Assembly: GCF_023051145.1 (NCBI RefSeq)
Contig: NZ_JALKFS010000005.1
Span: forward strand, 4,233,733-4,297,732
Direction of reading: 5' to 3'
Source of the DNA: Williamsia sp. DF01-3
Lineage (GTDB): Bacteria > Actinomycetota > Actinomycetes > Mycobacteriales > Mycobacteriaceae
Length of the DNA stretch: 64,000 nucleotides
Below the pieces are notes generated by a model that saw nothing but the letters and a program-made list of their open reading frames with translations, made no database searches and was not told the DNA's origin. Below, piece after piece: positions 31,482 through 45,206 of the stretch (position 1 is its first letter; each line of letters starts with the position of its first letter). The position numbers and the translations under genes were made by a program.

Positions 31482-32225
31482 ATGACCCCACACCCGCAGA
31501 CGCCATCGGTGCTGGTCGTCGACGACGAGCCACTGATCCGTCAGTCGATCGCGGACCGCCTTGGCGCGGAGGGCTTCGCGGTGATCACGGCCGACACGGG
31601 GCCTGCTGCGATCGACGCTCATCGCAGCACCGATCCGGATGCGGTGATCCTCGATCTGATGCTTCCGGGGATGGACGGCCTCGAGGTCTGCCGGCGCATC
31701 CAGGCACATTCGGCGACCCCGGTACTGATGCTCACCGCCCGCTCCGGCGAGACCGACCTCGTCATCGGACTGGGAGTGGGCGCCGACGACTACCTGGCCA
31801 AGCCGTTCTCGATGCGCGAGCTCGTGGCGCGCACCCGCGCCCTGCTCCGACGTGCCGAACGCTACGGCCCGTTCACCGACTCTGCCGCCGAGCCCGCGGC
31901 GGCAGATCCGGCCGACGAGGTGAGAGACGGTCTGCGCATCGATGAGGCCGCCCGGCAGGTGACGGTCGAAGGGCAAGAGGTACATCTCACCCGCACCGAG
32001 TTCGACCTCCTGGCGTTCCTGCTCCGCCACCCCGGCGCCGTGCTCAGTCGTGAACAGTTGCTCGACGCGGTCTGGCACTGGCCCGCCGCCGGAGAGACCC
32101 GCACGGTCGACAGCCACATCCGTTCCCTCCGCAAGAAGGTGGGTTCGTCTCGGATACGGACCGTGCACGGCATCGGCTACGCGCTCGAGGTCCGCGCGGT
32201 GTCGGGAACCGAGGGATCGCCGTGA
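31482..32225 (+). CDS. Two-component response regulator, OmpR/PhoB family
   Basis: 247 residues. Receiver domain (about 8-125) with acidic pair DD at 14-15, phospho-acceptor Asp58 in ILDLMLPG and Lys107 in YLAKPFS. DNA-binding winged helix in the C-terminal 100 residues (LTRTEFDLLAFLLRHPG, then TVDSHIRSLRKKV). Its stop overlaps the histidine kinase start (GTGA). The linker between domains is Ala/Pro-rich. Input signal and targets unknown; the DUF4173-like gene downstream may be one target. Confidence 0.95.
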   Translation: MTPHPQTPSVLVVDDEPLIRQSIADRLGAEGFAVITADTGPAAIDAHRSTDPDAVILDLMLPGMDGLEVCRRIQAHSATPVLMLTARSGETDLVIGLGVGADDYLAKPFSMRELVARTRALLRRAERYGPFTDSAAEPAAADPADEVRDGLRIDEAARQVTVEGQEVHLTRTEFDLLAFLLRHPGAVLSREQLLDAVWHWPAAGETRTVDSHIRSLRKKVGSSRIRTVHGIGYALEVRAVSGTEGSP

Positions 32226-33214
32226 TGCTGCCCCGGCCGCTGGACCCGCTGCACTCGTTCAAGTTCAAGACCGCGGTTGTGGTCGGTTGCGCACTGTTCA
32301 CCTCGAGCGTGTCCTTCTGGATCACCGCGCAGTGGCAGTTCCGGTACGCCTTGCTGATGGCACTGCTCGTCGCGATTGTCGTCACGTTTGTGCTCGCCCA
32401 CGGGATGACGTCTCCGCTGCGCGAGATGACGGGGGCGGTGCGCCGGATGTCCCGCGGCGACTACACCGCCCGCGTCCGAGCGACGTCTCGCGACGAGATC
32501 GGCACGCTGGCAACGGCTTTCAATCAGATGGCCGATGACCTCGCCGGGGAGGACCGCTATCGCCGCGAGGTCATCGGAAATGTCGCCCACGAGTTGCGGA
32601 CACCGGTCGCCGCACTGCACGCAGTGCTGGAGAACATGGTCGACGGCGTGCGAACGCCGGACCAGGAGACCCTCGAACTGGCGCTCTCGCAGACGGACCG
32701 GCTGGGACGGCTGATCACCGAGTTGCTGGACCTGTCCCGGATCGAAGGCGGGGTCGCCCAGCTCGACCACCAGCGCATCGATCTCACATGCTTCGCCGAG
32801 ACCGCCGTCGCCGAATGCCGGCTCCGCTCACCGGGCGACGTCTCGTTTGCGATCGACGTAGCGGCCGGCCTCCACGTTCACGCCGACGAGGGCCGTCTGC
32901 ACCAGGTGCTCGCCAATCTCCTCGACAACGCGGCCCGCCACTCCCCGCCCGGCGGCGTCGTGGAGGTCAGTGCCTGGCCGGAGGGCGAGGTGATTGTCAT
33001 CGACGTGGCCGACCAGGGCCCGGGTATCGCGCCCGCCGAGCGACTGCGCATCTTCGAGCGGTTCAGTCGAGGCGGATCACGCGACGGCGGAACAGGTCTG
33101 GGTCTGGCCATCGCCCAGTGGGTGATCACACTGCACGCCGGCGACATCGGTGTGGTCGACGACCCTGAGGGATGCCGGATCCGGATCCGCCTACCGCTCG
33201 TGCCCGCCGACTGA
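32222..33214 (+). CDS. Sensor histidine kinase
   Basis: 330 residues. Two membrane helices (about 17-37 and 42-60) with almost no extracytoplasmic loop, then HAMP (60-112), dimerisation domain with His123 in AHELRTP, and an ATPase domain with N box LLDNAARHS, G boxes DQGPGIA and GTGLGLAIA. The tiny external loop suggests sensing within the membrane rather than of a soluble ligand. Starts GTG at 32222 overlapping the regulator stop; an ATG follows as second codon. Confidence 0.95.
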   Translation: MMLPRPLDPLHSFKFKTAVVVGCALFTSSVSFWITAQWQFRYALLMALLVAIVVTFVLAHGMTSPLREMTGAVRRMSRGDYTARVRATSRDEIGTLATAFNQMADDLAGEDRYRREVIGNVAHELRTPVAALHAVLENMVDGVRTPDQETLELALSQTDRLGRLITELLDLSRIEGGVAQLDHQRIDLTCFAETAVAECRLRSPGDVSFAIDVAAGLHVHADEGRLHQVLANLLDNAARHSPPGGVVEVSAWPEGEVIVIDVADQGPGIAPAERLRIFERFSRGGSRDGGTGLGLAIAQWVITLHAGDIGVVDDPEGCRIRIRLPLVPAD

Positions 33215-33292
33215 CGACTGCTGGAACGCGCACACCATCGCCGCAGATCGCGGCACCATTTTGATCCATCGTCTCCGAGAGGTGCTACACCC

Positions 33293-34813
33293 ATGCCCAA
33301 AACCGACAGTTCGGATACTCCGCAGGCTTACCAATCGGTGGTGCTGACCAAGGAACCGGTCAAGGTCCGCCGGGTCACCCTCTCCACGTCGTTGCCTGGG
33401 GCCGCGCCCGCGAAAGTCGTTGGGGCAGTTGCCGTCACCACGGTACTGGCGATGGCGTTGGTGCCGACCGACGCGATCGGGATCGGCATCGCATTGACCG
33501 GCGTCGCGGTGCTGGCAGCCGTCTTCACCGCGTCGCCCGAGCGGCCCACCGTGCCCGAGCTGATCACCGCCGCCGGCATCGTTGCACTACTACTCGTCTC
33601 GGGATGGCGCAGCGCCGGATGGCTGGCCGCAGTCTGCACGGCCATCGCGATCCTGGCCACGGGGACGCTCGTTGTCGGCGCCCGGACCATTCGCGAGATG
33701 GCCGCAGCCGTCGTCGCGCCGATCGTCGCGGTCGTCCCGACCGCCGCGTGGTTGGGGCGCGGTATCGCCGATGGCGCACGGGACCGTCCGGTGAAGAACC
33801 TGGGGGCCATACTCCAGGTCGCAGTGGTGACAGTGGTGCTCCTGGTGGTGTTCGGCGCCCTGTTCGCCGGCGCCGACGCGACGTTCGAGTCGTTGTTGAG
33901 CACGGTGTTGCCGGACGTCGGCGACACCGAGGTGGGCCCCAGCGTTGTCCTCGGTCTTGTCATCGGAGGAGTCACCGCGATCGGGATCTACCTGCGCTAC
34001 GCCCGGCCACGCCTGACTGACCGGTCGCCGCGCACGTCGACCGAACCGTGGATGTGGGCAGTTCCCACCGGCACCGTGCTCGTCTTGTACATCGCCTTCC
34101 TGATCACCCAGGCGCGGGCGATGTTCGGCGGTGACGACTACGTGCAGGAGACGGCGGGACTGACCTACGCGGACTACGCGCGCACCGGATTCTGGCAACT
34201 CTTCGCCGTCACGGCACTGACCATCCTGGTGGTGTCGATCGCCTGGCAACGCGCGGACCGCAGCACGTCCGCCGGGCGGGTACTGACGCGGACGATCCTC
34301 GGCGGACTCTGCATCGCGGCGCTTGCCGTCGTGGCTTCGGCGTTGCACCGGATGGACCTCTACATGGACACCTTCGGCGCCACCCGGCTGCGCGTCGGTG
34401 TGATGGCGACAGAGCTGTGGCTCGGAGCCGTCCTCGTCGCCCTGATCATTGCCGGCGCCGGCCTCGGCACCCGCCAATTGCCAAGAGCTCTAGGGTTTCT
34501 CACCATGGTCGCCGCATTGTCGTTCGCGGCCTACAACCCGGACGAACGGATCGCCCAGGCCAACGTCGACCGCTTCGAGCGAACCGGAAAGGTCGATCTG
34601 ATCTATCTGACGAACCTGTCCCCCGACGCCACCGAAGCGCTGCTGGGGCTGCCCGTCGACCTTCAGGAGTGCGTCCTGCGTGGCATCGGGCGCGACCTTG
34701 CGGACGAACACGGACCCACGGCATTCAATGTGGGACGCCACCAGGCACGCGAAGCACTCGAAGGCCGCGAGTCAGGTTCTGCCGCTGCCCCGGTCAGCTG
34801 CGCGCCGCGCTAA
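33293..34813 (+). CDS. Multi-spanning membrane protein, DUF4173/DUF4153-like
   Basis: 506 residues with about ten or more hydrophobic helices between residues 40 and 420 and a soluble C-terminus. The stretch TYADYARTGFWQL, then MDLYMDTFGATRLRV and later NPDERIAQANVDRFERTGKVDLIYLTNLS, matches the conserved core of the DUF4173 family as I remember it. Function of the family is unknown. It lies 78 bases after the kinase gene with GAGAGGTG before its start, and so probably belongs with the two-component system, a common arrangement in actinobacteria. Confidence 0.85.
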   Translation: MPKTDSSDTPQAYQSVVLTKEPVKVRRVTLSTSLPGAAPAKVVGAVAVTTVLAMALVPTDAIGIGIALTGVAVLAAVFTASPERPTVPELITAAGIVALLLVSGWRSAGWLAAVCTAIAILATGTLVVGARTIREMAAAVVAPIVAVVPTAAWLGRGIADGARDRPVKNLGAILQVAVVTVVLLVVFGALFAGADATFESLLSTVLPDVGDTEVGPSVVLGLVIGGVTAIGIYLRYARPRLTDRSPRTSTEPWMWAVPTGTVLVLYIAFLITQARAMFGGDDYVQETAGLTYADYARTGFWQLFAVTALTILVVSIAWQRADRSTSAGRVLTRTILGGLCIAALAVVASALHRMDLYMDTFGATRLRVGVMATELWLGAVLVALIIAGAGLGTRQLPRALGFLTMVAALSFAAYNPDERIAQANVDRFERTGKVDLIYLTNLSPDATEALLGLPVDLQECVLRGIGRDLADEHGPTAFNVGRHQAREALEGRESGSAAAPVSCAPR

Positions 34814-34837: not shown

Positions 34838-35332
34838 ATGACATCTTCCGTCCAGCCCCCTCGAAGCAGCCCCACCCACCGTTTCCGTCAGAAGCTCCCC
34901 GCAGGCCGGCTGGGCTCGGTGCTGTTCTCGATCGGGATGTGTGTGCGGGTCCCCTACTTCGCGACCATCGTCCCGTTCGTGAAGACGATGGAGCCCGGCA
35001 GATGCGAGGTCGTCGCGCCGAAGTGGTTCGGCGTCCACAACCACCTCGGCACGTTCCACGCCATCGCGGCGTGCAATCTCGCCGAGGTCGCGATGGGAAT
35101 GCTGATGGAGGCCACCGTGCCCAGCACGCACCGCTGGATCCCGAAAGGGATGGAGAGTCGCTACCTCGCCAAGGCCACCACCGGTCTGCATGCGGTCGCG
35201 ACGCTGTCCGAGCCGGTCGACTTCGCGGCATTGACCGAGGGATGCGAGGTGCCGGTGGACATCTCGATCACCGACCGCGACGGCGTCGAAGTGGTCCACT
35301 GCACCATCACCACCTGGGTGACGCCGTCATGA
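34838..35332 (+). CDS. Hotdog-fold protein, DUF4442 / PaaI-like thioesterase
   Basis: 164 residues. The pattern of the DUF4442 hotdog family is visible: RVPYFATIVPFVKTMEPGRCEV, then NHLGTFHAIAACNLAEVAMG with the acidic residue on the central helix, then KGMESRYLAKATTGL. Family members are thought to be acyl-CoA thioesterases or acyl-binding proteins. No ribosome site is obvious, only 24 bases separate it from the gene before, and an operator-like repeat fills that gap, so it may have its own regulated, nearly leaderless promoter. Confidence 0.85.
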   Translation: MTSSVQPPRSSPTHRFRQKLPAGRLGSVLFSIGMCVRVPYFATIVPFVKTMEPGRCEVVAPKWFGVHNHLGTFHAIAACNLAEVAMGMLMEATVPSTHRWIPKGMESRYLAKATTGLHAVATLSEPVDFAALTEGCEVPVDISITDRDGVEVVHCTITTWVTPS

Positions 35333-35400: not shown

Positions 35401-38052
35401 ATGAACGGTCAGCCGCGGAATATCGGGGTGGAAGAGGAGTTCCACCTCGTCGACCTCCGCACCCGCCGGTTGACTCCACGGGCACCTGAACTGCTCGAGG
35501 CCCTGCCGCATACGGGTGGCTATGTGGAGGAATTGCAACGCTGTGTCATCGAGGTGAACAGTGCTGTGTTCAGCAGGCTTTCGTCGTTACGTGATGATCT
35601 GCGTGAGCATCGTGCGGTCTTGGCGGACACGGCCCGCGAACTCGGGATCGGGGTGGTGGCCGCGGGCGCCATGCCTCTGGCGGTCCCCACCGAACTACAG
35701 GTCACCGAGACCCCGCGCTACCGCCAGATGCTGGCCGACTACCAACTCCTCGCCCGGGAACAGCTCATCTGCGGAACCCAGGTCCACGTCGATGTCGCTG
35801 ATCGCGACCAGGCGGTCCAGGTTGCGTGGCGACTGTCGCCTCACGTGCCGACCTTGCTGGCGCTGTCCGCGAGTTCACCGTTCTGGGCCGACGGTACCGA
35901 CACCGGCTATGCCAGCTCACGCACACTTGTCTGGCAACGTTGGCCCACCACGGGCCCATTTCTCCGTCTCGATTCCGCCGCTCACTATGACGCCGAGATC
36001 CAACGCCTGATCGACACCGGAGTCATCACCGACCCGGGAATGGTCTATTACGACGTGCGGCCCTCGGCGAGGCAGCCGACACTCGAACTCCGGGTCTGCG
36101 ACAGCTGTCCCTCCGTCGACACCGTCGCGCTCGTCGCCGGCCTGTTCCGGGCATTGGTGCAGCACGAGATCACGGCCATGGCCCACGGCGAACCCGGCGT
36201 CGAGGTGTCGCCCACGATCTATCGGGCGGCGTTGTGGCAGGCTGCGCGGTCGGGCTTGGAGGCAGACCTCGTCGACATGGTCGCCGCCAAACCGCGTCCG
36301 GCCGAGGACATGGTGCGCGAACTGGCGTCGATGCTGCAGCCGGAACTGGAGTCCTGCGGCGACTGGGAGACGGTCACCGAGCTCATCGATCAGGCGATCG
36401 GTGTCGGCAGTTCGTCGGCCAGGCAACGACGTGCGCTGCGGCGGCGTGGACATCTGTCGGACGTGGTGGACAGTCTGATCACCGAGACCGCCGGCGCTGC
36501 CCCACCCCCGCCGACAGTCGCCGACCCCGCCAACCCGATGCTCCACAGCTACAACACACGGCACGACAATCCACAACACGACAATCCACAACCCGACCTC
36601 TACGACGAGGTGTTCGACGCCGACGGCCGGGTACGGGGCGCATACCGCGGGGTCATCGACACTCTGACCACCCTGGGCCCGGTCACCCTGCGCAACCGGC
36701 AACATCACATGGAGAGCGAGCAGAGCGCGGGCGGGATGACCTTCCGGGTCAGCGGCCAGGACCGGGCACAGATCTTCTCCCTCGACGCGGTGCCGCGGAT
36801 CATCGAGGCCGATACCTGGGGGCGGGTGTCGAAGGGGCTGCGCCAGCGCGCCCTCGCCCTCAACGCCTTCCTCCTGGACGTCTACGGCGACCAGCAGATC
36901 ATCTCCGAAGGCGTCATCCCGCCTGAGATCCTGGACCGGGCCCCTGGGTACCGAAGCGCAGGCAATGCCCCACGGTGGCAACGGGTTCGGACCCACATCT
37001 GCGGGACCGATCTGGTGTCGACCGGACCGGGCGAGTTCTGTGTCCTGGAGGACAACCTGCGGGTGCCCTCGGGCGTCGCCTACGCGATCACCAACCGCGC
37101 TCTGATGACCCGGTTCCTCGGCGAGATCAGGTGTCACGACGAGATCCTGCCGGTCGACACCATGCCGCAGATGATCGCCGAGACGCTGGACGCCGCGCGT
37201 CCACCACGCGGCGATCCGAACGGCGCGATCGTGGTCCTGAGCGTCGGGTGGGAGGACTCGGCGTGGTTCGAGCACACGATGATCGCCGAACGCGCCGGGC
37301 TGGCCGTGGTGGACGCCGGCGACCTACGTGGTGACGGTAACCGGATCGTGGCGCGGATCCACGGCAAGGACGTGCCGCTCAGCGTCATCTACGCCCGCAT
37401 GGACGAGGACATGCTGCTCTCGTCGACAGGATCCGATGGTGCACCTCTGCGGCACCCGTTCCTCCGGGCGCTCGGAGCCGGAACGCTCGCGATCGCCAAC
37501 GCGCTCGGCAACGGGATCGCCGACGACAAGGCCGTGTACGCATTCGTCCCAGCGATGATCCGGTATTACCTGGGCGAGGAGCCGGCGATCGACCAGATCC
37601 CCACCTGGCTGTGTGCCGAGCGCGATCAGCGCGACCACGTGCTCTCCCGCCTGGACGAGATGGTCGTGAAACCGATCGACGGCCTCGGCGGCTCAGGGGT
37701 GATGATCGGACCCGAGGCCACCGAACAGGAGCTGGCCGAGCGGCGCAAAGACCTGATCGGGCACCCGGAAAGGTTTGTCGCACAAGACGTTGTCCGGCTG
37801 TCCACCCACCCGACGTTCGACGGTCAGGGGCTCTACCCGCACCACGTGGACCTACGTGCGTTCGTTCATCTACGGGCCGACGGGGAGGGCAACGTCTCGG
37901 CTCACATGGCGCCGGCGGCCCTCACCAGGGTCGCCCCCTCGGGCAGCATGATCGTCAACTCTTCCCGTGGCGGAGGCGGCAAGGACACGTGGATTCTCAC
38001 CGGAGAGTCGCGGGACCATGGCTGCCCGCAGACCCCAACGGAAAGGCGGTAG
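35401..38052 (+). CDS. Fusion of a GCS2-type carboxylate-amine ligase and a circularly permuted type 2 ATP-grasp enzyme
   Basis: 883 residues. Residues about 5-365 are a glutamate-cysteine ligase family 2 (YbdK-like) domain: IGVEEEFHLVD, GTQVHVDVADRDQAV and the late motif LELRVCDSCPSVDTVALV. A linker (about 366-400) contains a duplicated HDNPQ repeat. Residues about 400-870 are a circularly permuted ATP-grasp domain (YDEVFDADGRVRGAYRG, VGWEDSAWFEH, VVKPIDGLGGSGVMIG). Both halves form amide bonds from carboxylates using ATP, so the protein may make a dipeptide in two steps or ligate two groups. Three bases separate its stop from the AsnO-like gene. It most likely supplies the acid that the next enzyme amidates. 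Confidence 0.9.
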   Translation: MNGQPRNIGVEEEFHLVDLRTRRLTPRAPELLEALPHTGGYVEELQRCVIEVNSAVFSRLSSLRDDLREHRAVLADTARELGIGVVAAGAMPLAVPTELQVTETPRYRQMLADYQLLAREQLICGTQVHVDVADRDQAVQVAWRLSPHVPTLLALSASSPFWADGTDTGYASSRTLVWQRWPTTGPFLRLDSAAHYDAEIQRLIDTGVITDPGMVYYDVRPSARQPTLELRVCDSCPSVDTVALVAGLFRALVQHEITAMAHGEPGVEVSPTIYRAALWQAARSGLEADLVDMVAAKPRPAEDMVRELASMLQPELESCGDWETVTELIDQAIGVGSSSARQRRALRRRGHLSDVVDSLITETAGAAPPPPTVADPANPMLHSYNTRHDNPQHDNPQPDLYDEVFDADGRVRGAYRGVIDTLTTLGPVTLRNRQHHMESEQSAGGMTFRVSGQDRAQIFSLDAVPRIIEADTWGRVSKGLRQRALALNAFLLDVYGDQQIISEGVIPPEILDRAPGYRSAGNAPRWQRVRTHICGTDLVSTGPGEFCVLEDNLRVPSGVAYAITNRALMTRFLGEIRCHDEILPVDTMPQMIAETLDAARPPRGDPNGAIVVLSVGWEDSAWFEHTMIAERAGLAVVDAGDLRGDGNRIVARIHGKDVPLSVIYARMDEDMLLSSTGSDGAPLRHPFLRALGAGTLAIANALGNGIADDKAVYAFVPAMIRYYLGEEPAIDQIPTWLCAERDQRDHVLSRLDEMVVKPIDGLGGSGVMIGPEATEQELAERRKDLIGHPERFVAQDVVRLSTHPTFDGQGLYPHHVDLRAFVHLRADGEGNVSAHMAPAALTRVAPSGSMIVNSSRGGGGKDTWILTGESRDHGCPQTPTERR
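36562..36591 (+). repeat. 15-base in-frame tandem duplication in the fusion linker
   Basis: Two exact copies of CACGACAATCCACAA, encoding HDNPQ twice, exactly between the two enzyme domains. Length variation here would change only the linker. Confidence 0.85.
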
Positions 38053-38055
38053 CGA

Positions 38056-39861
38056 ATGTGCGGCATCAGCGGGGAGATCACCTGGGGCGGTGAGCGGCCC
38101 GATCTCGCGGCCGTCGCAGCCATGACCGAGACGATGACCGCTCGCGGACCCGACGGCGAGGGTGCCTACCTCCACCGCAACGTGGCCCTCGGGCACCGGC
38201 GACTGGAGATCATCGATCTGTCCGGCCGAGGTGCACAACCCATGGTCGACACCGCTCTGGGTCTGTCGCTGGTGTTCAACGGCTGCATCTACAACTATCG
38301 CGAGCTGCGCGATGAACTCGCGGGCCACGGCTACTCCTTCTTCTCGACCGCCGACAGTGAGGTGATCCTCAAGGCGTTCCACCGCTGGGGCGCCGACTGC
38401 GTCCAGCATTTCAAGGGCATGTTCGCGTTCGCGATCGTCAACACCGACACCGGTGAACTGACGCTGGCCCGCGATCGCCTCGGCATCAAACCCCTGTACA
38501 TCAGCGAGACGGCGTCGCGGCTGCGCTTCGCATCGTCCATCCCGGCACTGCTGCGCGCCGGTGGCGTCGACACCTCGATCGATCGCGTCGCGTTGCACCA
38601 CTACTTCACGTTCCATTCGGTGGTGCCCGCGCCGCACACCATGTATGCCGGTGTCCGCAAGTTGCCGCCCGCCACGGTCCGCACCATCACAGCCGACGGC
38701 ACATCCACCGAAAAGCGTTACTGGGAGCCGGTTTTCGAGCCTCATCCCGATCGCCTGAATTGGGACGAGGCGCAATGGGGCGAAGCCCTGATCGACTCCC
38801 TGCGGGTGGCGGTACGCCGGCGGATGGTCGCCGACGTCCCGGTCGGCGTGCTGCTCTCGGGCGGTATCGACTCGTCCCTGGTCGTCGCGCTGCTCGCCGA
38901 GCAGGGACAACGCGACCTCGCGACGTTCAGCATCGGATTCGACTCGGCCGGTGGCGAATCCGGTGACGAGTACGAGTACTCCGACCTCATCGCGAGCACG
39001 TTCAGAACCGACCACCACAAGATCCACATCGGCACCGACCGTCTGCTCCCCGCCATTCCAGGCACCGTCGCGGCGATGAGCGAGCCGATGGTCAGCCACG
39101 ATTGCGTGGCGTTTTATCTGTTGTCCCAGGAGGTCAGCAAGTCGATCAAGGTGGTGCAGTCCGGACAGGGCGCCGACGAGATCCTCGGCGGCTACGACTG
39201 GTATCCGCCCCTGGAGAACACTCCGCGCGAGGATGTCACGAAGGCATACGCCTCGGTGTTCTTCGACCGTTCACACCACGAGCTGAACACGTTGTTGCGC
39301 AGCGACTATCGCCTGGACCACGACCCCAGTTGGCAGTTCGCCTCCGAGCACCAGAACGCGCCGGGTGCCGCCACCGCCGTCGACGCGGCCCTGCGACTCG
39401 ACACCACCGTGATGCTGGTCGACGACCCCGTCAAACGCGTCGACTCGATGACCATGGCATGGGGTCTGGAAGGTCGCGTCCCTTTCCTCGATCACGAGTT
39501 CGTCGAGCTCGCGGCCACGTGCCCACCGGGGCTCAAACTGGCGCACGGCGGCAAAGGGGTGCTCAAGGAGGCCAGCCGCACCCTGTTGCCTGCTGAGGTC
39601 ATCGACCGCACGAAGGGCTATTTCCCCGTCCCCGGCATCCGCCACCTGGACGGTGGAGTCCTCGACCTGGTCACCGACACCTTGCGCGCCGAGTCGGCGC
39701 ATCGCCGCGCGTTGTACGAAGACGACGCCATCGCCGCACTGCTGGCCACCCCGAATCGGACTCGCACCACCCTGGGCTCGAACGCGCTGTGGCAGGTCGC
39801 CATGCTGGAGATGTGGCTACAGAGCATGGAGTCGATGACAGGCACGCCGGGGTCGAGGTGA
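38056..39861 (+). CDS. Asparagine synthase-like amidotransferase, resembling AsnO (N-acetylglutaminylglutamine amidotransferase)
   Basis: 601 residues. Class II glutaminase with Cys2 (MCGISGEI) and FNGCIYNYREL; synthase domain with PP-loop SGGIDSS near residue 271 and later GQGADEILGGYDWYP and LEGRVPFLDHEFVE. The ADSEVILKAFHRWG and GVRKLPPATV stretches resemble AsnO of the proteobacterial N-acetylglutaminylglutamine amide (osmolyte) pathway more than housekeeping AsnB. It should move ammonia from Gln to an adenylated carboxylate, perhaps of a glutamine dipeptide made by the upstream fusion enzyme. Its TGA overlaps the GTG of the peptidase gene. Confidence 0.85.
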   Translation: MCGISGEITWGGERPDLAAVAAMTETMTARGPDGEGAYLHRNVALGHRRLEIIDLSGRGAQPMVDTALGLSLVFNGCIYNYRELRDELAGHGYSFFSTADSEVILKAFHRWGADCVQHFKGMFAFAIVNTDTGELTLARDRLGIKPLYISETASRLRFASSIPALLRAGGVDTSIDRVALHHYFTFHSVVPAPHTMYAGVRKLPPATVRTITADGTSTEKRYWEPVFEPHPDRLNWDEAQWGEALIDSLRVAVRRRMVADVPVGVLLSGGIDSSLVVALLAEQGQRDLATFSIGFDSAGGESGDEYEYSDLIASTFRTDHHKIHIGTDRLLPAIPGTVAAMSEPMVSHDCVAFYLLSQEVSKSIKVVQSGQGADEILGGYDWYPPLENTPREDVTKAYASVFFDRSHHELNTLLRSDYRLDHDPSWQFASEHQNAPGAATAVDAALRLDTTVMLVDDPVKRVDSMTMAWGLEGRVPFLDHEFVELAATCPPGLKLAHGGKGVLKEASRTLLPAEVIDRTKGYFPVPGIRHLDGGVLDLVTDTLRAESAHRRALYEDDAIAALLATPNRTRTTLGSNALWQVAMLEMWLQSMESMTGTPGSR

Positions 39862-41873
39862 CACCGGCGGTCACAGGCAGCTCTGCGCAGCGTACGTCGG
39901 GCTCGACGACCTCGGACGACACCCGTCAGCGCCACAGCTACGGTGCGTCGGTGTCGCCGGGAGGAAAGGCGCTCGCCTACATCCTGGACGATGGCACCGG
40001 GTACCCGCGGGCAGTGCAGCGATCTCTCAGCAGGGCGGGCGCCGGACCGCTGCGGATGGTCGATCTGCCGTGCACCGGGCCGGTACGCAAACTGATCCAC
40101 TCCGCGGACGGGCACTGGCTGGCGTGTGAGGTCGCGCCCGGAGGCGGCGAACACCATCAGGTGTGGGTGGTGACCACCGACCCCCACGACACCGCCGCCC
40201 ACCGGGTGGCGGCCGCCGACGACTACGCGACGGTCGAGCTGATCGGGTGGGACGTGAACCGGGTGCAGCTCACCGCGACCGAGGCCGACGGAACCGCCCA
40301 CGCTCTCATCGCCGATCCCCAGTCGCAGTACGTCATCGACCTCGATGCCCGGGTGGGTGGGCACTTGGTCGATTCGTGGAAGGACGCCGCCCTGCTGCGG
40401 GTGGGACCACGTGGATATCGCGACATGTTGTTGCTGCGCAGGGACAATCGGCGTTCGGCGCAGTCCGATCCGCACGCCACGACCATCACCCCGCTGCTCC
40501 CCAACGACACCGGGGCGACGACCGACCAGGGTGTGATCCTCGACCAGGGCTACCAGCACTCGTCCCTGCTCTTCCCCGGCCTCGGCCTGCCGAAGCTCCA
40601 CAAAGACCTCGACAGCGTGCAGGCGCTGGTGCGCAGCGACTTCGACGCCAAGTTCCCCCGACTGCTCGGTATCGAATCCGCGCGGGAGGGTATCCGGTTC
40701 GCGGTCATCGCCGAGCGGCCGGACTGCGGTTTGGACGAATTCGCGCTCAGCTACGACCAGAGCACCCTGGCCATCCTGTGGAACAACAAGGGGCGCAGCG
40801 AGTTACAGGTGATGACACTGCCCGACCGCACGCTGCACCCACCGATCGAGTTGCCCGGTGCGGTTGTCGGTGAATTGTCGATCAGTACAACGGGTTCCCT
40901 GATCGCGATGACCGTGCAGGGTCCCGACCTCCCTCCCGAGGTGGGTCTGGTGAACTGGCGTGAGGCGCACTGGACTCCCCTTGACCACCCGGATGCCATC
41001 AGCCACAGCACCACGGATCGCCGCGGCACAAACCAGCCCGACCACGTCGAGTTCTTCGCCCGCGACGGGATGCCGTTGTCGGGCTGGCTCTATCACCCGG
41101 ACGACTCGGCGTCCCGGGCCGCTCGTGAGCGGCGGGCGGGCCAGGGTGGAGGCTCCGGCGCACAACCGGCACTCATCTACTTCCACGGCGGACCCGAAGC
41201 CCAGGCCCGGCCCGACCACAGCTTCCTGTTCCCCGCCCTGCTCGAGGCAGGCATCACCGTCCTCGCGGCGAACGTGCGCGGCTCGGGAGGTTCCGGCCGG
41301 CTGTTCGCCCACGCCGACGACCGGTACGGCAGATATGCCGGGATCAACGACGCCGCGGACTGCGCGGCTTTCCTCGTCCGCGAAGGTTATGCCGATCCCG
41401 ACCGGATCGCTTGCGCAGGAAGGTCGTACGGCGGATACCTGACGTTGGCATGTCTGACCTTCCACGCCGAGACGTTCGCGGCCGGCGTGGCGATCTGCGG
41501 GATGAGCGATCTTCAGTCGTTCTACGAGAACACCGAACCATGGATCGCAGTGGCCGCGTACACGAAGTACGGACATCCCGACGCCGACCGGGAACTGTTG
41601 CGCGACCTGTCGCCCATCCATCGCATCTCCGAGCTACGTGCGCCGCTGCTGGTGATCCACGGCCGACACGACACCAACGTCCCGGTCAGTGAATCCGAGC
41701 AGGTCGTCGAGTCCGCTCGCGCACACGGGCAGAAAGCCGATCTGATCCTCTTCCCCGACGAGGGGCACGAAATCGTGAAACGGGACAATCAGCGTGTGCT
41801 CACCGAGGCCCTGCGAGACTGGGTGCTCGACGCATTCGCCACACCCGGCTCACCCGGCACCGGTAGCCGATAG
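39858..41873 (+). CDS. S9 family (prolyl oligopeptidase-like) serine peptidase
   Basis: 671 residues from GTG at 39858, chosen because it overlaps the preceding stop (GTGA); an ATG at 39789 would overlap by 73 bases. N-terminal part (to about 400) is beta-propeller-like; the C-terminal alpha/beta-hydrolase domain has HGGPEAQ (oxyanion region), nucleophile Ser in GRSYGGY near residue 520, Asp in HGRHDTNVP and His in DEGHEI. No signal peptide, so it acts in the cytosol on short peptides. Placed after two peptide-making enzymes, it may trim or recycle the product; in proteobacterial NAGGN operons a peptidase of another family holds the same place. Confidence 0.88.
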   Translation: MTPAVTGSSAQRTSGSTTSDDTRQRHSYGASVSPGGKALAYILDDGTGYPRAVQRSLSRAGAGPLRMVDLPCTGPVRKLIHSADGHWLACEVAPGGGEHHQVWVVTTDPHDTAAHRVAAADDYATVELIGWDVNRVQLTATEADGTAHALIADPQSQYVIDLDARVGGHLVDSWKDAALLRVGPRGYRDMLLLRRDNRRSAQSDPHATTITPLLPNDTGATTDQGVILDQGYQHSSLLFPGLGLPKLHKDLDSVQALVRSDFDAKFPRLLGIESAREGIRFAVIAERPDCGLDEFALSYDQSTLAILWNNKGRSELQVMTLPDRTLHPPIELPGAVVGELSISTTGSLIAMTVQGPDLPPEVGLVNWREAHWTPLDHPDAISHSTTDRRGTNQPDHVEFFARDGMPLSGWLYHPDDSASRAARERRAGQGGGSGAQPALIYFHGGPEAQARPDHSFLFPALLEAGITVLAANVRGSGGSGRLFAHADDRYGRYAGINDAADCAAFLVREGYADPDRIACAGRSYGGYLTLACLTFHAETFAAGVAICGMSDLQSFYENTEPWIAVAAYTKYGHPDADRELLRDLSPIHRISELRAPLLVIHGRHDTNVPVSESEQVVESARAHGQKADLILFPDEGHEIVKRDNQRVLTEALRDWVLDAFATPGSPGTGSR

Positions 41874-41896: not shown

Positions 41897-42622
41897 GTGT
41901 CCACACACCAGTCGCAGCCACCGTTGGTCTCGTACCTGAGCGGCGAGCGCTCGGGGTCGGCGCAGGCGAGCGTGCTGGGCGATCTGCGGCGGGTGATCCT
42001 CGACGGCAGCGCGGCTCCGGGTACCGCCATCCCGGTCGGTGAGGTGGCAGATCTCTTCGGTATCAGCGCGATCCCGGTGCGTGAGGCGCTCAAGACCTTG
42101 ATCGGCGAAGGCCTGGTGGGCCATCAGACCGGCGGGGGTTACTTCGTCGCGCAGCTCACCCTCACCGAGTTGAAAGAGATCTACTTCGTCCGGGGCGTCC
42201 TCGAGCAGGCCGCCTTGAGCCGAGCATGCGAGCTGGCCACCGACGACGACCTGGACCGCGCGCGCAGAGAGCACGAGGCACTGCAGGAAGCGACCATCGC
42301 CGGCGACAGGCGCGCGTACCACGTGCATTCGCGTCTGTTCCATCGCGCACTCGCCGCGCCGTGCGGCATGCTTCGCCTGCTCAACATGTTCGACTCCACA
42401 TGGGACATCACCGAACCGTTCCAGGTGATGCAGCGGGCGACCGGGCCCACCCAGCTGCAACTGCACAGCGACCACGAGAAGATGATCGACGCCATGGCCA
42501 GGCGTGACGCCGGCGACTTGATCTCGATCGCACAGGCCCACCATCGCCGGCTCGAATCGGTGATCATCGAGACCGCCGCCGAGCTGAACGTGGCTCGTGA
42601 GGATCAGCCACCGGTTCGCTGA
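41897..42622 (+). CDS. GntR-family regulator, FCD subgroup
   Basis: 241 residues from GTG with AGAGGAAA upstream. N-terminal winged helix (about 25-90, ending IPVREALKTLIGEGLVGHQTGGGYFV) and a helical FCD ligand-binding domain (about 95-230) with the metal-site pattern of Asp and His residues (FHRAL, HSDHEKMIDAM, AQAHHRRL). It lies 165 bases before the NCS1 permease gene and probably regulates it and the racemase, most likely in response to a small carboxylate or hydantoin-related compound. Confidence 0.9.
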   Translation: MSTHQSQPPLVSYLSGERSGSAQASVLGDLRRVILDGSAAPGTAIPVGEVADLFGISAIPVREALKTLIGEGLVGHQTGGGYFVAQLTLTELKEIYFVRGVLEQAALSRACELATDDDLDRARREHEALQEATIAGDRRAYHVHSRLFHRALAAPCGMLRLLNMFDSTWDITEPFQVMQRATGPTQLQLHSDHEKMIDAMARRDAGDLISIAQAHHRRLESVIIETAAELNVAREDQPPVR

Positions 42623-42637
42623 TTCGCCCGCAATTCG

Positions 42638-42656
42638 CGCTCTACCAGAGCGTTTC
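42638..42656 (+). terminator. Terminator after the GntR gene
   Basis: Stem CGCTCT-ACC-AGAGCG at 42638-42652 followed by TTTCT, 16 bases after the stop. Confidence 0.6.
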
Positions 42657-42796
42657 TGGTCGGTGCTCGCAGAATATATCGCATTCCCTGGCGTTGACCC
42701 GGCCGATTTGTCACGTACGTAATCAGGGTGCAACACAGCGAACTTAGGTTTTTCTCAGCCGCAAAGGAACTCCGAAACAACTCGAGGATGCCGCCC

Positions 42797-44359
42797 ATGA
42801 CAAACGTCAAGACTCCAGGTTCTGAACCCGAGATACCGACCAATCACAACAATGCAGCGGGCGAGAGCGTCATCAAGCTCGGTTACGACCAGCGCCTCAC
42901 CAACGAGGATCTCGCGCCACTGCGACACCAGACGTGGACCTGGTACAACATCTTCGCGTTCTGGATGTCCGATGTTCACAGCGTCGGCGGATATGTCTTC
43001 GCGGGCAGCCTCTTTGCGCTGGGCATCGCCGCCTGGCAGGTCTTGGTCGCCCTGGTGATCGGCATCGTGATCGTCAACCTGCTCTGCAATCTGGTCGCGA
43101 AACCGTCCCAGCAGGCGGGTGTGCCCTATCCGGTGACGACCCGCGTTGCCTTCGGTGTCCGCGGCGCCAACATCCCGGCCATCATCCGCGGTCTGATCGC
43201 AGTGGCCTGGTACGGGATCCAGACCTATCTCGCCTCGGTGGCGTTCGGTCTCCTTGCTCTCAAGTTCTGGCCGTCACTCGAGAAGTACAGCGAGAGTGGC
43301 GACATGGCCTTCCTCGGTCTGTCACCACTCGGCTGGGCCGGCTTCATGCTGATGTGGGTCCTGCAGGCGATCGTCTTCTGGAACGGCATGGAGACCATCC
43401 GCAAGTTCATCGACTTCTGCGGGCCCGCGGTTTACGTGGTCATGGTCATTCTCGCCGGCTACCTCATCTGGAAAGCCGGCTGGGACAACGTCAGTTTTGA
43501 TCTGTCGGTCGGCCCCAGCAAAACCGGCTGGGCATCGATCACCGCTCTGATCAGTGCCATCGCCCTTGTGGTGTCGTACTTCTCGGGCCCGATGCTCAAC
43601 TTCGGCGACTTCTCCCGCTACGGCAAGTCCTACAGCGAGGTCAAGAAGGGCAACTTCTGGGGACTGCCGGTCAACTTCTTGTTCTTCTCGATCCTGGTGG
43701 TGTGCACGGTGTCCGCGGGCGCCACGGTGATCGGTACGGACGAGGCGGGCAACATCATCACCGATCCGGTGCACATCGTCGACAAGATCGACAACACCAC
43801 TGCTGCCGTCCTGGGTGTCCTGACATTCGCCATCGCGACCATCGGGATCAACATCGTCGCCAACTTCGTCTCCCCCGCATTCGACTTCTCGAATGTGGCA
43901 CCGACCAAGATCACCTGGCGCGCAGGCGGAATGATCGCAGCGGTCGGTTCCATCCTCATCACCCCGTGGAACCTGTACAACAATCCCGACGCCATCCACT
44001 ACACACTCGACACGCTGGGTGCGGTCATCGGGCCGCTGTTCGGGATCCTGATCGCCGACTTCTACCTCATCAAGAAGCAGAAGATCGAGGTCGACGACCT
44101 GTTCACGATGAACGAGAACTCCATGTACTACTTCCGCGGCGGCGTGAACCCGGTTGCGGTGGTGGCGACCATCGTCGCGGCGCTGGTCCCCATCGGAGTG
44201 GTCATCTGGGGCACCAGCTACCAGGCCAGCTTCACCTGGTTCATCGGTGCGGCAATCGGATTCGTCATCTACATGCTGGGTATGAAGCTGCTTCCCACCG
44301 AGCTGATCTATGGCACCCGGACCCGAGCTGCCGAGCCGTCTGAGGCGTCGGCCATCTGA
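42797..44359 (+). CDS. NCS1-family nucleobase/hydantoin:cation symporter
   Basis: About 520 residues from ATG at 42797 (GAGG about 9 bases upstream; ATGs at 42788 and 42728 are alternatives). Twelve membrane segments and the NCS1 signatures NEDLAPLRHQTWTWYNIFAFWMSDVHSVGGY near the N-terminus and GPMLNFGDFSRY mid-protein. Family members carry uracil, allantoin, cytosine or hydantoins with sodium or protons. Next to a hydantoin racemase, hydantoins (as for Mhp1) or allantoin are the likeliest cargo. The preceding gap (42657-42796) has TTGACC and the palindrome ACGTACGT at 42713-42720, a possible GntR site. Confidence 0.92.
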   Translation: MTNVKTPGSEPEIPTNHNNAAGESVIKLGYDQRLTNEDLAPLRHQTWTWYNIFAFWMSDVHSVGGYVFAGSLFALGIAAWQVLVALVIGIVIVNLLCNLVAKPSQQAGVPYPVTTRVAFGVRGANIPAIIRGLIAVAWYGIQTYLASVAFGLLALKFWPSLEKYSESGDMAFLGLSPLGWAGFMLMWVLQAIVFWNGMETIRKFIDFCGPAVYVVMVILAGYLIWKAGWDNVSFDLSVGPSKTGWASITALISAIALVVSYFSGPMLNFGDFSRYGKSYSEVKKGNFWGLPVNFLFFSILVVCTVSAGATVIGTDEAGNIITDPVHIVDKIDNTTAAVLGVLTFAIATIGINIVANFVSPAFDFSNVAPTKITWRAGGMIAAVGSILITPWNLYNNPDAIHYTLDTLGAVIGPLFGILIADFYLIKKQKIEVDDLFTMNENSMYYFRGGVNPVAVVATIVAALVPIGVVIWGTSYQASFTWFIGAAIGFVIYMLGMKLLPTELIYGTRTRAAEPSEASAI

Positions 44360-44390
44360 CCGGATCAACCCGATCCATATCTTCGATCGC

Positions 44391-44422
44391 GGGTGGCCGG
44401 CTGCGTCCGCAGCCGGTCACCC
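44391..44422 (+). terminator. Strong hairpin between permease and racemase genes
   Basis: 15-base-pair stem with one G-U pair (44391-44405 with 44408-44422) and a 2-base loop, 32 bases after the permease stop. It has no T tract; it may reduce read-through into the racemase gene. Confidence 0.6.
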
Positions 44423-44459
44423 GGGCCGTTCTCGTGCCGGGACAGGAATACTGGTTGTC

Positions 44460-45206
44460 GTGCGTATCAGCGTCATAAATCCCAATACCACCGTGTCGAT
44501 GACCGAGCAGATCGCGGCCGCGGCGCGGTCGGTGGCGGCGCCGGGAACCGAGATCGTCGGCGTCACCTCCTCGATGGGGCCCGCTTCAATCGAGTCGCAC
44601 TACGACGAGGCCTTGTCCGTTCCAGGCGTGATCGAAGCAATTGTCCGCAGTGAGCGCAGCGAGCATCCCGCCGACGCCTACGTGCTGGCCTGCTTCGGCG
44701 ACCCTGGACTCGATGCAGCCCGCGAAGTGGCCTCGGTTCCTGTGGTCGGAATCGCCGAAGCCGCGATGCACACCGCGTCCTTGCTCGGCCGCACCTTCTC
44801 GGTGGTCACCACGCTCGGCAGAACGATCGGTCGCGCCGAAGAGCTCGCCGAACGGTATGGACTGACGGGCCGCTGCCGCGGCATCCACGCGTGCGAGATC
44901 CCGGTGCTCGAACTCGAGACCAATCCGGACACCGCAGGCATCCTGGTGGAGGCGTGCCGTTCGGCCGCCGAGGCGGACGGCAGCGACGCGATCGTCCTGG
45001 GTTGTGCCGGTATGGCCGATCTTGCACAGGTCATCAGCGCCAAGATCGGCATTCCTGTGGTCGACGGAGTCGCCGCGGGCACCTTACTGGTCCAGTCGTT
45101 GGTCACCATGGGTCTGCGACCCCGGAACACAGGCGAACTCGCACCGCCGATCCCGAAGGTCTACCGCGGCCTGCTCGAGCCTTTCGGGCGAGGTGCGATC
45201 AGCTGA
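44460..45206 (+). CDS. Hydantoin racemase / Asp-Glu racemase superfamily
   Basis: 248 residues from GTG at 44460, the family length. Begins RISVINPNTT, a hydantoin racemase signature; paired catalytic cysteines Cys78 (LACFGDPG) and Cys182 (LGCAGMADL). Interconverts the two forms of 5-substituted hydantoins (or allantoin) by proton shuffling at the chiral carbon. No hydantoinase or carbamoylase lies in the window, so downstream steps must be encoded elsewhere. The upstream extended frame to 44310 is rejected. Its end overlaps the convergent gene at 45199 by 8 bases. Confidence 0.88.
   Translation: MRISVINPNTTVSMTEQIAAAARSVAAPGTEIVGVTSSMGPASIESHYDEALSVPGVIEAIVRSERSEHPADAYVLACFGDPGLDAAREVASVPVVGIAEAAMHTASLLGRTFSVVTTLGRTIGRAEELAERYGLTGRCRGIHACEIPVLELETNPDTAGILVEACRSAAEADGSDAIVLGCAGMADLAQVISAKIGIPVVDGVAAGTLLVQSLVTMGLRPRNTGELAPPIPKVYRGLLEPFGRGAIS

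What the first reader, a model, noticed from the sequence alone, without database searches (positions are those of the whole stretch)
35401..41873. Operon like an osmolyte (NAGGN) pathway, but with a different ligase and peptidase
An AsnO-like amidotransferase is flanked by a GCS2/ATP-grasp fusion and an S9 peptidase, with gaps of +3 and -4 bases. In proteobacteria AsnO works with an acetyltransferase/ATP-grasp ligase and an M42 peptidase to make N-acetylglutaminylglutamine amide. Here two ligase domains replace the acetyltransferase one, so the product may be a non-acetylated or gamma-linked amidated dipeptide. I know of no described product for this set.
Basis: partly seen in the sequence, partly recalled or inferred. 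Interest (0 to 1): 0.75.

Follow-up and report, generated by a model that had tools for sequence, protein, structure and literature searches.

The report
Peptide-amide operon resembling NAGGN pathway
An actinobacterium carries a three-gene operon that looks built to join glutamate to other amino acids, cap the product with an amide and later break it down; it resembles a known salt-protection pathway but uses different joining enzymes, and its product is unknown.

Summary
In detail: a GCS2 + circularly permuted ATP-grasp fusion (35401-38052), an AsnO (38056-39861) and an S9 peptidase (39858-41873), with a 3-base gap and a 4-base overlap, in a Williamsia genome. The AsnO is NAGGN-type (TIGR03104, 928 bits, cut-off 570.1). 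The genome has no Ngg or trio-M42 match over cut-off. The set recurs: of 251 family genomes, 57 carry AsnO; 15 beside Ngg, 31 beside a close orthologue of this GCS2 (23 fused, 8 short), 1 split by a contig end, 10 with neither; none has both Ngg and this GCS2. Catalytic-motif residues of AsnO are the same with either partner, so the amidation step is probably unchanged while the joining enzyme differs. Best reading: glutathione-style assembly of a gamma-glutamyl peptide, C-terminal amidation by AsnO, turnover by the peptidase. Product and role are unproven. Against a simple linear pathway: those 10 genomes keep AsnO and S9 without the ligase, and the host already has ectoine synthase. New variant of a known pathway type; in this sample most AsnO carriers have no Ngg.

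The parts
35401..38052 (+). GCS2 (YbdK-like carboxylate-amine ligase) fused to circularly permuted ATP-grasp type 2; proposed to make a gamma-glutamyl dipeptide and extend it
   Evidence: Pfam PF04107, PF14403, PF04174; PDB sequence relatives 1r8g (residues 4-340) and 3n6x (399-866); AlphaFold model pLDDT 74.5, pTM 0.72; Foldseek 3n6x TMt 0.82, 1r8g TMt 0.81, glutathione synthetases TMt about 0.5-0.6
38056..39861 (+). AsnO-type glutamine-dependent amidotransferase; proposed to amidate the C-terminal carboxylate of the peptide
   Evidence: TIGR03104 928 bits, cut-off 570.1; tree; column comparison with Ngg-linked AsnO
39858..41873 (+). S9 family peptidase, no obvious signal peptide by eye (no predictor run); proposed to hydrolyse the peptide amide or its parent peptide
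   Evidence: PF00326 158.8 bits; best PDB chain 5l8s amino acyl peptidase; GRSYGGY, HGRHD and DEGHE read in the sequence as catalytic Ser/Asp/His (motif meaning recalled)
34838..35332 (+). DUF4442 protein ending 68 bases upstream; possibly co-transcribed; among the loci examined it was seen near the operon only in Williamsia and genus code g5
   Evidence: PF14539 183 bits; loci

Best explanation
The operon makes and recycles a small cytoplasmic gamma-glutamyl peptide amide by a glutathione-style route. Step 1 (inferred from family): the GCS2 domain activates the gamma-carboxyl of glutamate with ATP and joins it to an amino acid. Step 2 (inferred from fold): the circularly permuted ATP-grasp domain adds a further residue to that dipeptide, as glutathione synthetase does; lineages without this domain would stop at the dipeptide. 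Step 3 (supported by homology): AsnO moves the amide nitrogen of glutamine onto the C-terminal carboxylate with ATP. Because the catalytic motifs are the same as in Ngg-linked AsnO, the acceptor probably ends in glutamine, as in NAGGN; gamma-Glu-Gln-NH2 (GCS2-only lineages) and gamma-Glu-Gln-Gln-NH2 (fusion lineages) are the specific guesses, held at about 0.2. Step 4 (inferred): the S9 peptidase breaks it down. The gamma-glutamyl group would do the N-capping job that acetyl does in NAGGN. No step has been shown by experiment here.
For: AsnO 928 bits to TIGR03104, 59% identical to the AsnO next to Ngg on S. meliloti pSymB. 186 of 601 AsnO columns hold the same residue at 95% or more in both Ngg-linked (32 rows) and GCS2-linked (40 rows) sets; 4 positions separate the sets at 85% or more, none in the motifs inspected; Cys2, RGPD, Arg49, SGGxDS and SGQGADE are invariant in both. 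Of the 14 non-Ngg AsnO genomes of the phylum sample, 12 have a GCS2 next to AsnO, in fused, separate or sole form; G298 and G076 do not. In 251 family genomes, 32 of 44 close GCS2 orthologues (384 bits or more) are in AsnO genomes (hypergeometric 1.7e-15, not corrected for kinship) and none with Ngg. By eye the GCS2 and AsnO trees share their main groups. Foldseek hits of the fusion include YbdK, 3n6x, glutathione synthetases and plant glutamate-cysteine ligase; the table gives no ranges, so which half matches the last two kinds is inferred.
Against: No product has been measured. 10 of 57 AsnO genomes keep AsnO and S9 with no Ngg and no close GCS2 orthologue, so AsnO may have another substrate or a ligase in trans. 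Some Streptomyces and Yinghuangia stretches have GCS2 or the fusion without AsnO; two family genomes have the fusion alone (L200, L213); fusions with S9 but no AsnO in the stretch exist. G076 has CP-ATP-grasp and AsnO but no GCS2 beside them. Specificities in both ligase families are poorly known (recalled). The model is moderate (118 of 883 residues under pLDDT 50).
Confidence: 0.5

Rival explanations
1. AsnO (and S9) act on a substrate not made by the fused ligase; the ligase is an optional neighbour serving a related pathway.
For: 10 of 57 family AsnO genomes have DUF4442, AsnO and S9 with the ligase gene absent beside them; Streptomyces NBC_01276 plasmid has AsnO and a peptidase without GCS2 in the stretch.
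Against: 32 of 44 close GCS2 orthologues in the family are in AsnO genomes, 31 adjacent and 1 split by a contig end; by eye the GCS2 and AsnO trees share their main groups.
Confidence: 0.17
2. The operon makes a glutathione-amide-like thiol: gamma-Glu-Cys, then a third residue, then amidation.
For: GCS-type and glutathione-synthetase-like fold matches; the fusion scores 361 bits against NF010041 'glutamate--cysteine ligase', cut-off 332; glutathione amide is reported from purple sulfur bacteria (passages of PMC8877833).
Against: AsnO motifs match Ngg-linked AsnO, whose acceptor ends in glutamine (passages of PMC8070244); actinobacteria normally use mycothiol (recalled); PMC4213376 did not detect glutathione amide in A. 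vinosum, against an earlier report (passages); none of the neighbours scanned is a disulfide reductase.
Confidence: 0.12
3. It makes NAGGN itself, with an acetyltransferase acting in trans or with the fusion replacing Ngg exactly.
For: AsnO identity; such genes carry the NAGGN amidotransferase name in Streptomyces records that also have GCS2.
Against: No TIGR03103 match over cut-off and no TIGR03106 match in this genome; neither fused domain is an acetyltransferase.
Confidence: 0.08
4. The ligases add residues to a protein or longer peptide (tagging), as proposed in print for other CP-ATP-grasp systems (recalled).
For: Weak Foldseek matches of the model include the Pup ligase PafA and Dop (part of the model matched not shown).
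Against: No carrier peptide or target gene was recognised among the 8 proteins scanned; GCS2-only versions still pair with AsnO; AsnO acts on a dipeptide in the known pathway (passages of PMC8070244).
Confidence: 0.08

Closest known systems
NAGGN osmolyte pathway (asnO-ngg, often with an M42 peptidase; S. meliloti, P. aeruginosa PA3459-PA3461)
   Same: AsnO 59% identical to the S. meliloti protein with the same catalytic motifs; AsnO beside an amide-bond-forming ligase and a peptidase
   Different: Ngg (GNAT + ATP-grasp) is replaced by GCS2 + circularly permuted ATP-grasp, M42 by S9; no acetyltransferase domain; no measured product
Glutathione biosynthesis (GshA/GshB, bifunctional GshF)
   Same: gamma-glutamyl ligase followed by a glutathione-synthetase-like ligase, fused in one chain
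   Different: the parts are GCS2 and CP-ATP-grasp type 2 rather than those of GshF (recalled); followed by an amidotransferase; cysteine use unknown
Glutathione amide of purple sulfur bacteria (passages of PMC8877833)
   Same: would also be a C-terminally amidated gamma-glutamyl peptide
   Different: a thiol in another phylum; no evidence of cysteine use here
YbdK carboxylate-amine ligase (1r8g)
   Same: fold and sequence relative of the N-terminal domain
   Different: single domain; only weak gamma-glutamylcysteine ligase activity is known (recalled)
Casuarina Frankia asnO cluster (PMC5563000, passages)
   Same: AsnO over 60% identical to others, a peptidase, and a 'Ngg' under 15% identical to other Ngg; possibly the same variant, described there as NAGGN
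   Different: those sequences were not examined here

Membership tests
AsnO / TIGR03104 | score over curated cut-off | tested here: met
   928 bits, cut-off 570.1
AsnO / TIGR03104 | groups with AsnO encoded next to Ngg rather than with AsnB-like proteins | tested here: met
   78 AsnO rows against 2 AsnB-like outgroup rows, SH-aLRT 100, quick tree without bootstrap
AsnO / TIGR03104 | Cys2 nucleophile, PP-loop SGGxDS, AsnO motif SGQGADE | tested here: met
   invariant in 32 Ngg-linked and 40 GCS2-linked rows; roles of the motifs recalled
NAGGN pathway | Ngg (TIGR03103) present | tested here: not met
   own genome best 35.6 bits, cut-off 569
NAGGN pathway | M42 peptidase (TIGR03106) present | tested here: not met
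   no match in own genome at E 0.001; some Ngg genomes (G361, G392) have none over cut-off either
NAGGN pathway | product is N-acetylglutaminylglutamine amide, induced by salt | not testable with these tools
   needs metabolite analysis
Glutathione / GshF-like plan | GCS-type domain and glutathione-synthetase-like ATP-grasp in one chain | tested here: met
   Pfam, Foldseek; an analogy of plan, not a shared family with GshF
Glutathione / GshF-like plan | uses cysteine and glycine | not testable with these tools
   no assay
Ordinary asparagine synthetase AsnB | best match AsnB rather than AsnO | tested here: not met
   TIGR03104 928 bits versus TIGR01536 427.1 and PRK09431 279.3

The most novel reading that the evidence does not exclude
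A widespread, undescribed actinobacterial pathway that makes gamma-glutamyl peptide amides by combining a GCS2 ligase, often a glutathione-synthetase-like ATP-grasp, and a NAGGN-type AsnO, with interchangeable hydrolases (S9, DUF1028); its product would be a new kind of compatible solute, nitrogen store or thiol, and many genes now annotated as NAGGN amidotransferase belong to it.
Probability: 0.45. Interest if true: 0.7.

Novelty: new variant of a known kind. Interest (0 to 1): 0.52.

Why it matters
It separates the amidation step from the bond-forming step of a known osmolyte pathway and shows that AsnO lives with several different bond-forming enzymes in actinobacteria. It predicts an unknown class of peptide amides in well-studied groups such as Streptomyces. 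It also shows that an 'N-acetylglutaminylglutamine amidotransferase' annotation alone does not imply NAGGN: in the sampled family only 15 of 57 AsnO carriers have Ngg, and in the phylum sample 32 of 46.

Tried and rejected
Ectoine profile: a test whether AsnO complements missing ectoine synthesis was uninformative, because ectoine synthase is in 215 of 251 genomes. Promoter and terminator scan: 0 promoter-like sites (shuffled mean 0.6) and 3 terminator-like sites (mean 2.0), so no regulation is claimed. Grouping neighbours by ORF length was confused by antisense frames in GC-rich DNA and replaced by tblastn with named queries; those tables hide AsnO matches under 400 bits and other matches of 60 bits or less, so partial AsnO at contig ends can be missed. 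Micromonospora 'ABAGG' osmolyte (PMC10513789, passages) is an anthranilic acid derivative and unrelated. Ordinary AsnB rejected. NAGGN as the product rejected as most likely, for lack of Ngg. Rows left out of the AsnO tree: near copies L133, L137 and L145, fragmented L174, partial L078, L079 and L080; no class D row passed the length filter of the GCS2 tree. A second structural alignment with residue ranges (pdb_via) was not available.

Literature: no paper describing this gene set was seen in the listings (20 of 106 shown; 20 of 489; 20 of 44; 20 of 72; 12 of 33). Passages only were read of PMC8070244, PMC8146288, PMC5563000, PMC5768760, PMC11537254, PMC10513789, PMC4213376 and PMC8877833. 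Two likely key papers (Sagot 2010 PNAS; Iyer 2009 Mol BioSyst) are not held; Iyer 2009 may already mention this neighbourhood (recalled, unread), so first description is not claimed.

Full report
WHAT IS THERE. The window lies in a Williamsia genome: two named W. muralis loci match the fusion protein at 97 and 98% (best segment). Three genes run on the plus strand: an 883-aa fusion of GCS2 (residues 9-286) and circularly permuted ATP-grasp type 2 (465-845), a 601-aa AsnO, and a 671-aa S9 peptidase. A DUF4442 gene ends 68 bases upstream; a GntR/FCD regulator, NCS1 permease and Asp/Glu/hydantoin racemase follow.

THE AMIDOTRANSFERASE. It scores 928 bits against TIGR03104 (cut-off 570.1), against 427 for general asparagine synthase. 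It is 59% identical to the AsnO of S. meliloti pSymB, which lies beside Ngg; AsnO and Ngg of S. meliloti make NAGGN according to passages of PMC8070244. In a quick tree of 78 AsnO and 2 AsnB-like rows (SH-aLRT only), Ngg-linked AsnO form several groups. One group of 42 rows (support 93, not starred) holds 40 GCS2-linked rows and 2 AsnO-S9 rows without ligase; the 3 class D rows form another. Comparing 32 Ngg-linked with 40 GCS2-linked rows, 186 of 601 columns hold the same residue at 95% or more in both sets, and 4 positions (278, 528, 570, 574) separate them at 85% or more; none is in the catalytic motifs inspected. I infer the same reaction and a similar acceptor end.

THE PARTNERS. In 396 genomes of the phylum, 46 have AsnO over cut-off, the own genome included. 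I fetched the neighbourhoods of the other 45. Of 46: 32 have Ngg next to AsnO (one of them, G344, across split contigs), 4 the window-type fusion with S9 (own included), 4 GCS2 and S9 without CP-ATP-grasp, 4 a separate CP-ATP-grasp (class D), 1 AsnO-S9 without ligase (G298), 1 a diverged GCS2 (G121). Of the 4 class D genomes, 3 also have a diverged GCS2 gene upstream (G130 and G237, G379); G076 does not. Three have a similar downstream gene, identified as DUF1028 by Pfam in the one scanned (L061); the fourth contig ends inside AsnO.

NAMED RELATIVES. Of 44 named loci found with the fusion as query, 17 have GCS2, CP-ATP-grasp, AsnO and S9 (labelled Williamsia, Mycobacterium, Aldersonia, Kineosphaera, and one each Kitasatospora and Nevskia, both probably mislabelled), 8 have GCS2, AsnO and S9 without CP-ATP-grasp (7 Streptomyces, 1 Kitasatospora), 6 have the fusion or part of it without AsnO (L143 and L151 are cut by short contigs; L153 has S9), 5 only GCS2 and 8 only CP-ATP-grasp. 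Annotated Streptomyces fungicidicus plasmid DNA shows glutamate--cysteine ligase, N-acetylglutaminylglutamine amidotransferase and alpha/beta fold hydrolase in a row.

FAMILY COUNT. In 251 family genomes: AsnO in 57, Ngg in 15 (all beside AsnO, one genus code), a close orthologue of the window GCS2 (384 bits or more) in 44. Of the 57: 15 beside Ngg, 23 beside a fusion-length GCS2 frame, 8 beside a short GCS2 frame (in 4 of these 8 I read the neighbourhood and found no CP-ATP-grasp: L182, L183, L184, L190), 1 split by a contig end (adjacency seen), 10 with neither. No genome has both Ngg and the GCS2 orthologue. Of the 12 orthologues without AsnO, two are fusions standing alone (L200, L213) and ten have frames of 742-848 aa; four of those ten were translated (L185, L187, L188, L189) and look like GCS2-M20 fusions, confirmed by Pfam for L185. 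The association of GCS2 with AsnO is strong (hypergeometric 1.7e-15) but the test ignores kinship.

HISTORY. Four GCS2-only members of the family nest inside fusion members in the AsnO tree, so the ATP-grasp domain was probably lost there. In a tree of 39 CP-ATP-grasp domains, class D and the fusions lie on one side of a branch (99) from 8 others; the outgroup was small and chosen by similarity to the window.

THE FUSION. Its invariant residues among 15 sequences include ones shared with YbdK and 3n6x in the alignments, so both domains look intact. The AlphaFold model (pLDDT 74.5, pTM 0.72) matches 3n6x (TMt 0.82), YbdK (0.81), glutathione synthetases (about 0.5-0.6) and plant glutamate-cysteine ligase (about 0.5). 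The table gives no residue ranges and the aligner that would was unavailable; I infer that the ATP-grasp half gives the glutathione synthetase matches. This suggests the order of glutathione synthesis: gamma-glutamyl bond, then a second ligation, here followed by amidation.

AGAINST. In all 10 no-ligase family genomes (one genus code, g5) DUF4442, AsnO and S9 remain and the ligase gene is missing beside them (L064, the other nine, L202-L210; L205 has an unread gap of about 1.5 kb between DUF4442 and AsnO). Three other g5 genomes keep the fusion (L197, L211, L212). AsnO there has either another substrate or a ligase in trans. This is unexplained. The host has ectoine synthase, so an osmolyte role is not required. 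No product is known.

VERDICT. The finding is a new variant of the NAGGN type of pathway, with a different bond-forming enzyme. The specific product is a guess that needs biochemistry.

Noticed in passing
window 41897-45206: GntR/FCD regulator, NCS1 permease and Asp/Glu/hydantoin racemase follow the operon; one or more of them lie beside it in the Williamsia loci and in all 13 genus g5 loci examined, but gave no match in the Mycobacterium or Aldersonia loci, so probably a separate pathway.
   Followed up: partly
L185 7913-10297; L187, L188, L189: Orthologues of the window GCS2 in one chain with an M20 peptidase/amidohydrolase: ligase and hydrolase in one protein (four translated; Pfam run on L185 only).
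   Followed up: partly
L191-L194: Tandem GCS2-CP-ATP-grasp fusion genes (in L194 the first copy shows no GCS2 match) followed by S9, no AsnO in the stretch; genus code g240, probably Dietzia from its place near L153 in the trees.
   Followed up: partly
L064, L202-L210: DUF4442-AsnO-S9 loci where the ligase fusion gene is absent though three genomes of the same genus code keep it.
   Followed up: partly
L133; L145: A record labelled Kitasatospora arboriphila matches the Williamsia operon at 97%, and a 'Nevskia' MAG contig gives the same matches as a Mycobacterium MAG contig (L146): likely mislabelled or misbinned.
   Followed up: no
window 31482-34813: Response regulator-like and histidine kinase-like genes and a DUF4153 protein upstream of the operon; the first two judged by eye, DUF4153 by Pfam.
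   Followed up: no
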